Part shown: piece after piece, positions 21,877 through 27,895 of the stretch
Layout of the letters: the number at the start of each line of letters is the position of its first letter
Numbering within the stretch: the stretch's first letter is position 1
Origin: Paenibacillus sp. FSL M7-0420
GTDB taxonomy: Bacteria; Bacillota; Bacilli; Paenibacillales; Paenibacillaceae
Direction of reading: 5' to 3'
NCBI RefSeq assembly: GCF_038002345.1
Contig: NZ_JBBOCJ010000001.1
Coordinates: 3,100,001-3,164,000 of the forward strand
Length of the DNA stretch: 64,000 nt
Translations under genes and position numbers: made by a program
The notes under the pieces: model-generated
Databases searched by the model: none
Told to the model about the DNA's origin: nothing
The model's input: the letters and a program-made list of their open reading frames with translations, nothing else

Positions 21877-22098
21877 ATGTAAGGCTCCTTTCGAATGATC
21901 TGCTGAATTGAGTTATATTTTATCATAATTTGGGAGAGCAGGTTCTGCCTTTGTTATTGTTCATGGCTGGAGAATTGATTAAACAGAGGTCTATGTCCCC
22001 TGAATTTCAAATTTAAAAGAATTAAGGCTTGACGCCAGCTTACTTGGCGTGTAACATATGAAGAGTCGTCAACCCGGCACTTAACTCATAACTCTATA

Positions 22099-22184
22099 TT
22101 GTTCTCGTATAACCCCGCAGCTATTCAGCTTTCACAGGGCGGGGGTTTCTACAGGAAGCCTACTCTTCCTAACTACGATGATAA
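22099..22184 (+). promoter_or_regulatory. Purine-type riboswitch aptamer (guanine-like core, expanded P2 loop)
   Basis: P1 is TCGTA (22105-22109) with TACGA (22174-22178), extendable past one C-U mismatch to 22099/22184. J1/2 continues TAA. P2 is CCCCGC (22113-22118) with GCGGGG (22139-22144). J2/3 is the diagnostic GTTTCTAC (22145-22152). P3 is AGGAAG (22153-22158) with CTTCCT (22165-22170). J3/1 is AACT, placing C at the specificity position (22173) and U at the position equivalent to 51 (22150), the guanine-type combination. The P2 loop is 20 bases instead of about 7, with a small internal AGCT-AGCT hairpin; loop 3 is CCTACT, and its CCT could pair with AGG (22135-22137) in loop 2. The general fold is known; the loop form is unusual. 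Confidence 0.8.
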
Positions 22185-22227
22185 GGACCATGAACCAGTG
22201 GTCCCTGTCCCGGAGTTAGGATTTTTT
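22167..22227 (+). terminator. Riboswitch-controlled terminator before the EamA gene
   Basis: TCCTAACT (22167-22174), the 3' arm of P3 plus J3/1, pairs perfectly with AGTTAGGA (22214-22221), followed at once by six Ts. An inner hairpin GGACCA/TGGTCC sits at 22185-22204. The terminator therefore competes directly with the aptamer: ligand binding should keep TCCTAACT in the aptamer and allow readthrough (ON switch), as in the adenine switch of pbuE. Confidence 0.78.
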
Positions 22228-22287
22228 GCGTGTTGCGGCTGTAATTCAAGTTCAGACGAAACAGAAGATTCAGGAGGCATAACAGAC

Positions 22288-23253
22288 ATGAAAGATATGA
22301 AATACTTAATCTCCGTACTTGTAGGGGCTATGAGCTACGGCATTTTATCAACGATTGTTGTATTGGCCTACGGGCAGGGTTACAAGCTGGGAGAGGTGGT
22401 CGGCACCCAGCTCTTAACCGGCTGTATTCTCGCCTGGCTGCTTGCGTTATATACCAAGCTCAGAGCGAACCGCAAACAACGCGGCACAGCGAACGTTACG
22501 GCACCCGCCAAGGCGGTTCCCACCCGGCTGACCTGGAAGCACAGAGTGCTGCTGATGCTGGCCGGTGCGCCAACCGTGGTTACCGGTCTGCTGTATTACC
22601 AGTCGCTCCGGTATATTCCGGCTTCGCTGGCGATTATCCTGCTGTTCCAGTTCACCTGGATCAGTGTGCTGATTCAGGCGGTCAGCAAACGTCAACGCCC
22701 TGACAAAATCACGGTGCTGACGCTGATCCTGCTGTTCGGCGGAACCCTGCTGGCTGCAGGTATTCTGAATCAGGGCGCTGCCGAGTTTAACCTGCTGGGG
22801 CTGATGCTCGGACTACTATCGGCAGTAAGCTACTCCATGTTTATTATCTTCAGCGGCAAAGCCGTTCCATCGGCCCATCCGGCCTACCGGAGCGCCTGGA
22901 TGGTCACTGGCGGCCTGGTGCTGCTGTGTATCCTGTTCCCGCCGACCTTCCTGTTTAACGGCATGCTATGGGGACCGCTGCTGCTGTTCGGCTTCCTGCT
23001 GGGCTTGTTCGGCGCCTTTATCCCGCCGCTGCTGTTCGCTATCGGGGTTCCGCATATCGGCGGCGGTATGGCCGGTATTCTGGGCGCCGTCGAACTGCCT
23101 GTGGCTGTCTTAATGTCCTCGTTCGTATTGCAAGAGCATGTAAGTCTTCTGCAATGGACCGGAGTGGTGCTGGTGCTGCTGGGTGTGGTATTGCCGGAGC
23201 TGTATAAGCTGCGGTGGGGTAATGCTCAGAGCATGAGTTCGTCATCGGTCTGA
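22288..23253 (+). CDS. EamA/DMT-family transporter under a purine-type riboswitch
   Basis: A 321-residue inner-membrane protein with ten predicted helices in two EamA repeats (VLVGAMSYGILSTIVVLAYG, PTVVTGLLYYQSLRYIPASL, then ALSAVSYSMF-like and FGAFIPPLLFAIGVPHIGGG). DMT proteins are mostly exporters of metabolites. AGGAGG at 22272-22277 sets ATG 22288; the open frame extends further up but only across the riboswitch. The riboswitch architecture predicts induction by a purine, so the simplest reading is purine or purine-analogue efflux. The cargo is inference only; nucleoside or amino-acid export is possible. A terminator follows. Confidence 0.88.
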   Translation: MKDMKYLISVLVGAMSYGILSTIVVLAYGQGYKLGEVVGTQLLTGCILAWLLALYTKLRANRKQRGTANVTAPAKAVPTRLTWKHRVLLMLAGAPTVVTGLLYYQSLRYIPASLAIILLFQFTWISVLIQAVSKRQRPDKITVLTLILLFGGTLLAAGILNQGAAEFNLLGLMLGLLSAVSYSMFIIFSGKAVPSAHPAYRSAWMVTGGLVLLCILFPPTFLFNGMLWGPLLLFGFLLGLFGAFIPPLLFAIGVPHIGGGMAGILGAVELPVAVLMSSFVLQEHVSLLQWTGVVLVLLGVVLPELYKLRWGNAQSMSSSSV

Positions 23254-23378: not shown

Positions 23379-23442
23379 GGATTGTTACTGCAAAGGCAAA
23401 ACCCAAAACATGGTCACGTGTTTTGGGTTTTGCCTTTCTTTA
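23379..23442 (+). promoter_or_regulatory. RAT antiterminator and terminator before licT
   Basis: GGATTGTTACTG followed by GGCAAAACC is the ribonucleic antiterminator (RAT) bound by LicT/SacT proteins. It overlaps the 5' arm of a terminator: 23396-23411 pairs with 23420-23435, followed by TTTCTTT. Between the two RAT halves this copy is about four bases shorter than the copy at 24386. Confidence 0.88.
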
Positions 23443-23540
23443 TGTTAAGGACCCTGCGGGACGCCGTAAGGATTCCTTGACCCGTCTAACATCCTGTAAG
23501 CAGTGCCAAATGAAATTCGGGGTAAAGGAGGGCAGCTTGG

Positions 23541-27895
<4,355 letters not shown>

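What the first reader, a model, noticed from the sequence alone, without database searches (positions are those of the whole stretch)
22099..23253. Purine-type riboswitch with expanded P2 loop and an ON-switch terminator before an EamA transporter
The three-way junction core is read directly: P1, GTTTCTAC J2/3, P3 and J3/1 with C at the specificity position (guanine type). Unlike canonical members, the P2 loop is 20 bases with its own AGCT-AGCT hairpin, and loop 3 is CCTACT, so the loop-loop contact must differ or be weakened. The 3' arm of P3 plus J3/1 (TCCTAACT) is exactly complementary to AGTTAGGA ahead of six Ts, so ligand should prevent termination. A guanine-type core in an ON switch driving a probable exporter is the opposite of the usual guanine OFF switches on uptake and synthesis genes; it recalls the adenine/pbuE case. 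It may report a purine or purine analogue that is toxic in excess.
Basis: partly seen in the sequence, partly recalled or inferred. Interest (0 to 1): 0.8.

Follow-up and report, generated by a model that had tools for sequence, protein, structure and literature searches.

The report
Purine riboswitch variant before EamA transporter
A guanine-type RNA sensor with one slightly shifted helix sits in front of the same membrane-transporter gene in many Paenibacillus-like bacteria and probably switches that transporter on when a purine builds up; it looks like a new variant of a known sensor, and its exact ligand still has to be measured.

Summary
Window 22105-22178 is a purine three-way-junction aptamer (RF00167 36.2 bits, cut-off 37) with guanine-type junction letters and C74. 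A competing terminator (TCCTAACT/AGTTAGGA, then T6) predicts an ON switch. Of 100 genus genomes, 45 carry this aptamer, and the same 45 carry the EamA orthologue, side by side. All 67 named-genome loci returned have it; 25 paralogue loci do not. P2 covaries and the terminator follows J3/1 changes in 13 of 17 rows. The long P2 loop is not the defining feature: it is 6-36 nt across relatives and folds no better than shuffles. GG-CC loop pairing is kept. More characteristic is a P3 helix shifted by one base: L3 one base shorter, J3/1 one longer. Guanine-II, the closest described variant (a likely copy precedes a phosphoribosyltransferase gene in this genome), differs, and ON guanine switches are already known. 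Best reading: a transcriptional ON riboswitch for guanine or a close 6-oxopurine, controlling a DMT-type exporter. Ligand and export are untested. New variant of a known kind.

The parts
22029..22057 (+). promoter-like site TTGACG-17-TAACAT
   Evidence: 3 such sites found in 1661 bases, 1.5 expected by chance, so weak alone; by reading, L049-L051 have TTGACA and TAATAT at the same place
22105..22178 (+). purine-type aptamer, P1 to P1'
   Evidence: RF00167 36.2 bits; family models R1 111.4 bits and R2 90.9 bits, the window belonging to both training sets
22113..22144 (+). P2 with 20-nt loop; GG 22137-22138 for the kissing pairs
   Evidence: P2 covariation; loop length variable
22145..22152 (+). 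J2/3 GUUUCUAC
   Evidence: GUNUCUAC in 61 of 61 aligned relatives
22153..22170 (+). P3 in the shifted register with 6-nt L3 (CC 22159-22160)
22171..22173 (+). J3/1 AAC: extra base, purine 73, C74
   Evidence: W-R-C-U in 61 of 61 aligned relatives
22167..22227 (+). intrinsic terminator that uses P3' and J3/1 as its 5' strand; inner hairpin 22185-22204; six T 22222-22227
22272..22277 (+). ribosome binding site AGGAGG
   Evidence: by reading
22288..23253 (+). EamA/DMT-family transporter, 321 aa
   Evidence: Pfam EamA 73.6 bits, cut-off 28.2; orthologues

Best explanation
A transcription-terminating purine riboswitch of guanine type acts as an ON switch for an EamA/DMT transporter. As the RNA emerges the aptamer folds first (computed). 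Without ligand the 3' strand of P3 plus J3/1 is captured by AGTTAGGA, the terminator forms and transcription stops (pairing and covariation shown; termination inferred). Guanine or a close 6-oxopurine pairs with C74, holds P3, J3/1 and P1 together and lets the gene be transcribed (inferred from the kept pocket letters U22, U51, C74). The transporter then probably exports that purine or a derivative (inferred from protein family and switch direction). Compared with ordinary guanine aptamers, P3 is shifted by one base, giving a 6-nt L3 and one extra base in J3/1.
For: 45 of 100 genus genomes have the aptamer and they are the 45 with the orthologue at 77-100% identity. 67 of 67 named-genome loci returned by the protein search have it upstream. 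71 of 71 loci fetched by RNA match in other genera and families have EamA downstream, 70 within 400 nt (L169 by hand). 0 of 25 EamA paralogue loci match. P2 changes: G-C to A-U in 25 rows, U-A to C-G in 16; cells changed on both sides 47 against 19.6 in shuffles. J1/2, J2/3 and C74 nearly invariant in 61 rows. Terminator complement of 7 or more bases with a T-rich tail in 60 of 65; matching change in 13 of 17 rows with altered J3/1. Prefix folding: aptamer as MFE from 22179 to 22215, terminator from 22219, final difference 7.3 kcal/mol.
Against: No binding or expression data. The window copy is just under the Rfam cut-off. P1 and P3 do not vary within the genus, so they lack covariation there. 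Two of the five covariation measures do not exceed shuffles (pairs with a two-sided change: 61 of 500 shuffles reach it; further pair types: 348 of 500). In 5 of 65 members the terminator complement was not found by the ungapped scan, and the same permissive scan also passes 3 of 6 other purine aptamers of this genome. The extra J3/1 base may alter specificity. The transporter's substrate and direction are unknown.
Confidence: 0.68

Rival explanations
1. Same ON mechanism, but the shifted P3 and extra J3/1 base make the pocket prefer another purine (xanthine, 8-oxoguanine, a methylated or deaza guanine, or a foreign analogue), and EamA is its dedicated exporter.
For: J3/1 insertions occur in xanthine-II and guanine-II (PMC9295807, read); strict link to one transporter and to no purine biosynthesis or salvage gene in the loci examined; several purine specificities are reported for this scaffold.
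Against: U22, U51 and C74, named as ligand contacts in PMC9295807, are kept in 61 of 61 rows; guanine-II has larger insertions and still binds guanine best (same paper).
Confidence: 0.22
2. It is guanine-II as already described, here with an EamA gene.
For: Same host group, U51 kept, J3/1 longer than canonical, predicted ON (PMC9295807).
Against: PRT-linked elements of this family (L264-L268, 5 of 5) have J3/1 CCAGGC and a 7-nt L3; the EamA family has W-R-C and mostly a 6-nt L3. The text of that paper does not hold the words transporter or EamA. Its figures and supplements were not seen.
Confidence: 0.07
3. A plain attenuator or protein-bound leader that only resembles a purine aptamer.
For: Window copy below the Rfam cut-off; no ligand tested.
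Against: 17 of 20 relatives tested exceed the cut-off; junction letters are kept across genera while loop 2 and flanks drift, which an attenuator would not need.
Confidence: 0.03

Closest known systems
Guanine-I riboswitch (RF00167)
   Same: Three-way junction, J1/2 UAUAA, J2/3 UNUCUAC, C74, GG/CC kissing loops
   Different: P3 shifted by one base, 6-nt L3, one extra J3/1 base; predicted ON; EamA gene
Guanine-II variant (Hamal Dhakal et al. 2022, PMC9295807)
   Same: Paenibacillus; U51 kept; longer J3/1; predicted ON
   Different: PRT-linked elements seen here have J3/1 CCAGGC and 7-nt L3; linked to phosphoribosyltransferase, not a transporter
Xanthine-II variant (same paper)
   Same: Longer J3/1; predicted ON; Paenibacillus
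   Different: Has U51G and longer J2/3; purine degradation genes
Adenine/pbuE riboswitch (recalled, not from a call)
   Same: ON logic in which the terminator invades P1'/J3/1/P3' ahead of a purine exporter gene
   Different: U74 for adenine, MFS-type exporter; here C74 and EamA
ykkC subtype 2d (PMC7266159, passages)
   Same: A riboswitch candidate controlling EamA transporters with unknown ligand
   Different: A different RNA scaffold (ykkC)

Membership tests
Purine riboswitch scaffold (RF00167) | P1-P3 three-way junction | tested here: met
   97.3% of cells paired over 61 rows, P2 covaries
Purine riboswitch scaffold (RF00167) | Junction letters, with C or U at position 74 | tested here: met
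   J1/2 UAA 59 and UAG 2, J2/3 GUNUCUAC 61, C74 61 of 61; L169, left out of A3, lacks one U in J2/3
Purine riboswitch scaffold (RF00167) | Rfam gathering score | tested here: inconclusive
   Window 36.2 against 37; 17 of 20 relatives tested pass
Purine riboswitch scaffold (RF00167) | GG/CC loop-loop pairs | tested here: met
   57 of 61 rows in the aligned columns; the other 4 have GG one base earlier by reading
Purine riboswitch scaffold (RF00167) | Binds a purine | not testable with these tools
   needs in-line probing or ITC
Guanine-I (canonical guanine riboswitch) | Canonical P3 register (7-nt L3, two-base J3/1 before U75) | tested here: not met
   Shifted register scores better in 66 of 67 and 69 of 71 EamA-linked loci (1 and 2 not parsed); canonical register in 30 of 30 top RF00167 loci
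Guanine-II | J2/3 one-base insertion and the J3/1 insertion seen in PRT-linked elements | tested here: not met
   J3/1 W-R-C against CCAGGC; J2/3 of canonical length if 54-72 pairs (A-U 30, G-U 24, G-C 2, unpaired 5 of 61). Published consensus figure not seen
Guanine-II | Mostly phosphoribosyltransferase genes | tested here: not met
   EamA in 71 of 71 fetched loci
Guanine-II | Predicted ON switch | tested here: met
Xanthine-II | U51G | tested here: not met
   U51 in 61 of 61
Adenine riboswitch | U74 | tested here: not met
   C74 in 61 of 61
8-oxoguanine variant | Pocket consensus of the 2023 paper | not tested
   Paper not held; the link to deaminase genes is recalled and does not fit here
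EamA/DMT transporter | Pfam EamA domain above the gathering score | tested here: met
   73.6 bits, cut-off 28.2
EamA/DMT transporter | Exports a purine | not testable with these tools
   no solved homologue by sequence at E 0.01, only generic names among those listed

The most novel reading that the evidence does not exclude
A separate purine riboswitch class of Paenibacillales: the one-base P3 shift and the extra J3/1 base reshape the pocket for a ligand other than guanine (a toxic, oxidised or foreign guanine-like purine), and the EamA protein is its dedicated exporter, which would give this orphan transporter group its first substrate.
Probability: 0.22. Interest if true: 0.75.

Novelty: new variant of a known kind. 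Interest (0 to 1): 0.5.

Why it matters
It gives a substrate hypothesis for a transporter group annotated only as EamA/DMT. It adds a widely spread structural variant to a well-studied aptamer scaffold, in a lineage already known for purine-riboswitch diversification. The ligand can be tested directly with standard assays. Many members score near or above the Rfam cut-off (17 of 20 tested), so the association may already sit unnoticed in public annotation.

Tried and rejected
Expanded P2 loop as the defining feature: rejected. Length 6-36 nt over 61 relatives; of 47 loops of 12 nt or more, mean z -0.22 against letter shuffles, 10 below -1, 25 no better than half of their shuffles.

Identity with guanine-II, xanthine-II or adenine switches: see the membership table. 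For guanine-II I used the elements before PRT orthologues (5 of 78 genomes searched had one), because the published figures and supplements were not available.

EamA paralogues as carriers: the 25 fetched loci of EamA matches at about 38-51% identity (L052-L076) have no R2 match at E 1 or better and no TTTCTAC in 450 nt upstream. The other paralogue matches were not fetched.

Operon partners as a ligand clue: downstream stretches of 14 loci, judged by reading, share no common gene, apart from L157 and L160, which look alike.

Solved structures by sequence: none at E 0.01. No protein fold was predicted.

The same variant before other genes: in 22 genomes the remaining R1 matches are at 40.1 bits or less. 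13 of these loci were looked at; 9 prefer the canonical P3 register, 1 ties, 3 were not parsed.

The P3 shift as a unique mark: weakened. Of 11 loci with mid scores and no EamA (L326-L331, L341-L345), 4 prefer the shifted register, 3 the canonical, 1 ties, 3 were not parsed. So the shift alone does not define the EamA group; the whole-aptamer score and the gene do.

Full report
WHAT IS THERE. The leader of the EamA gene at window 22288-23253 holds a purine three-way-junction aptamer at 22105-22178. Rfam's purine model scores it at 36.2 bits, E 2.6e-4, against a gathering score of 37, so the default search of the window lists nothing. The window lies in a 7.67-Mb genome in which one search finds six other purine aptamers, all over the cut-off. 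The close named relatives of the transporter are Paenibacillus species. The TTG ORF from 22099 given in the finding runs through the aptamer; the gene starts at ATG 22288 after AGGAGG.

A FAMILY, NOT A SINGLETON. One search found EamA matches at E 1e-20 in 86 of 100 genus genomes. In 45 of them the best match is an orthologue at 77-100% identity, and the aptamer stands upstream in 45 of 45. None of 25 fetched loci of more distant EamA matches (about 38-51%) has it. In the other direction, model R2 finds the aptamer at E 1e-15 or better in 45 of the same 100 genomes, once each. Comparing the two lists by reading, these are the same 45 genomes. In named genomes, 67 of 67 loci returned by the protein search (64 named Paenibacillus, 2 Cohnella, 1 named Bacillus) have it, at 54-113 bits. 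Starting from RNA matches in other genera and families, 71 of 71 fetched loci have EamA downstream: 69 within 400 nt by script, L169 within 400 nt by hand, L175 at 760 nt. These loci were picked by hand from lists capped at the best matches. The models were built from EamA-linked members, so high scorers resemble them, although the gene was not used in the search. R1 matched 225 of 295 family genomes at E 0.01, a count that includes ordinary purine aptamers. In samples of the order (246 genomes) and class (348 genomes) R2 scores fall from 72 bits to 66 or less. The 9 loci fetched above the gap from other families of the order all have EamA; none of the 11 fetched below it has.

ANATOMY. Across 61 diverse members (alignment A3) J2/3 is GUUUCUAC 43, GUCUCUAC 12, GUAUCUAC 6; J1/2 is UAA 59, UAG 2; J3/1 is AACU 46, UGCU 7, AGCU 4, UACU 4. 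P2 shows compensatory changes (G-C to A-U in 25 rows, U-A to C-G in 16). Over the structure 47 cells change on both sides against 19.6 in shuffles and 97.3% of cells pair, but the number of pairs with such a change (5) and of further pair types (17) is not above shuffles (61 and 348 of 500 reach it). Within the genus P1 and P3 never vary, as expected if their 3' strands also serve the terminator. The kissing pairs of solved purine aptamers (G37-C61, G38-C60; passage of PMC13374515) are kept: 57 of 61 rows in the aligned columns, and the other four have GG one base earlier by reading.

WHAT IS UNUSUAL. Not the P2 loop: it ranges from 6 to 36 nt and folds no better than shuffled letters. The unusual part is P3. 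Its 3' strand pairs one base earlier than in ordinary purine aptamers, so L3 has 6 bases where the consensus has 7 (5 in five of the 61 rows), and J3/1 gains one base. Scoring both registers, the shifted one wins in 66 of 67 named loci (1 not parsed) and 69 of 71 others (2 not parsed); a few of these were parsed at odd lengths. The canonical one wins in 30 of 30 top RF00167 loci. The shift is not unique: 4 of 11 mid-scoring loci without EamA also prefer it. The pair 54-72 is A-U 30, G-U 24, G-C 2 and unpaired in 5; where it is not formed, J2/3 gains a base as described for guanine-II.

MECHANISM. The 5' strand of the terminator is the 3' strand of P3 plus J3/1. Folding growing prefixes in steps of 4 nt gives the full aptamer as the best structure from 22179 to 22215 and the terminator from 22219 on; the final states differ by 7.3 kcal/mol. 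An ungapped complement of 7 or more bases (G-U allowed) followed by a T-rich tail lies downstream in 60 of 65 members; L169 (mis-parsed), L173, L174, L175 and L185 are the exceptions. This scan is permissive: 3 of the 6 other aptamers of this genome also pass it. Stronger evidence is that 13 of 17 rows with an altered J3/1 segment carry a terminator strand that pairs with the altered letters, two of them partly through G-U. The ON direction is thus supported by sequence evolution; termination and the effect of ligand are inferred.

LIGAND AND TRANSPORTER. The residues that PMC9295807 names as contacting guanine (U22, U51, C74) are kept in 61 of 61 rows, so guanine or a close 6-oxopurine is most likely. 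The extra J3/1 base leaves room for another ligand, because J3/1 insertions occur in xanthine-II and guanine-II. The transporter is EamA by Pfam, has no solved homologue by sequence at E 0.01, and the names listed for its relatives are generic (best 120 of 787). Export is inferred from family and ON direction.

COMPARISON. PMC9295807 (parts 1-4 of 6 of its text read, and passages) describes guanine-II in Paenibacillus: U51 kept, one-base J2/3 insertion, J3/1 insertion, mostly phosphoribosyltransferase genes, predicted ON. An element that fits this stands before a PRT-like gene in this genome (L006, same place as L264) and in 4 other genomes, with J3/1 CCAGGC and a 7-nt L3. The EamA family differs in both. 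The words transporter and EamA do not occur in that paper's text; its figures and supplements were not seen, so some EamA-linked members among its 55 sequences cannot be excluded. The guanine-II structure paper and the 8-oxoguanine paper are not held; what I say of the latter beyond PMC9295807's mention is recalled. Seven searches of open-licence papers showed no report of this association; I saw listings, plus passages of PMC5670726 and PMC7266159.

VERDICT. A real, well-conserved variant of the purine riboswitch, predicted ON, tied to one EamA transporter across sampled Paenibacillales. New variant of a known kind; ligand open.

Noticed in passing
L006 (G000:C1:5654564-5654666); L265-L268: Guanine-II-like aptamer (J3/1 CCAGGC, ON-type terminator) before a phosphoribosyltransferase-like gene, in the same genome as the window and in 4 other genomes.
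   Followed up: partly
L003; also L288, L296: Purine aptamer before an amidohydrolase; the L003 protein passes NCBIfam's 5'-deoxyadenosine deaminase cut-off and is below that for 8-oxoguanine deaminase. Possibly the 8-oxoguanine variant.
   Followed up: partly
L005, L290, L293, L295, L330, L341, L344, L345: Purine aptamers with C74 before a gene that reads like an FAD-dependent oxidoreductase; the L005 protein has no NCBIfam match at E 1e-20. Two of them (L341, L345) read as having a shifted P3. Target and ligand unclear.
   Followed up: no
L327-L329: Purine aptamers in other families of the class before genes that read like a 2Fe-2S xanthine-dehydrogenase small subunit; L329 scores slightly better in the shifted P3 register.
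   Followed up: no
window 23392-26382: A terminator-like hairpin (23392-23437) precedes a LicT antiterminator gene and a beta-glucoside PTS gene; probably a LicT-controlled operon unrelated to the riboswitch.
   Followed up: partly
L169:302-386: One EamA-linked copy lacks a U in J2/3 (GUUCUAC) and has a changed P1' (ACUGCGA); possibly a decaying switch.
   Followed up: no
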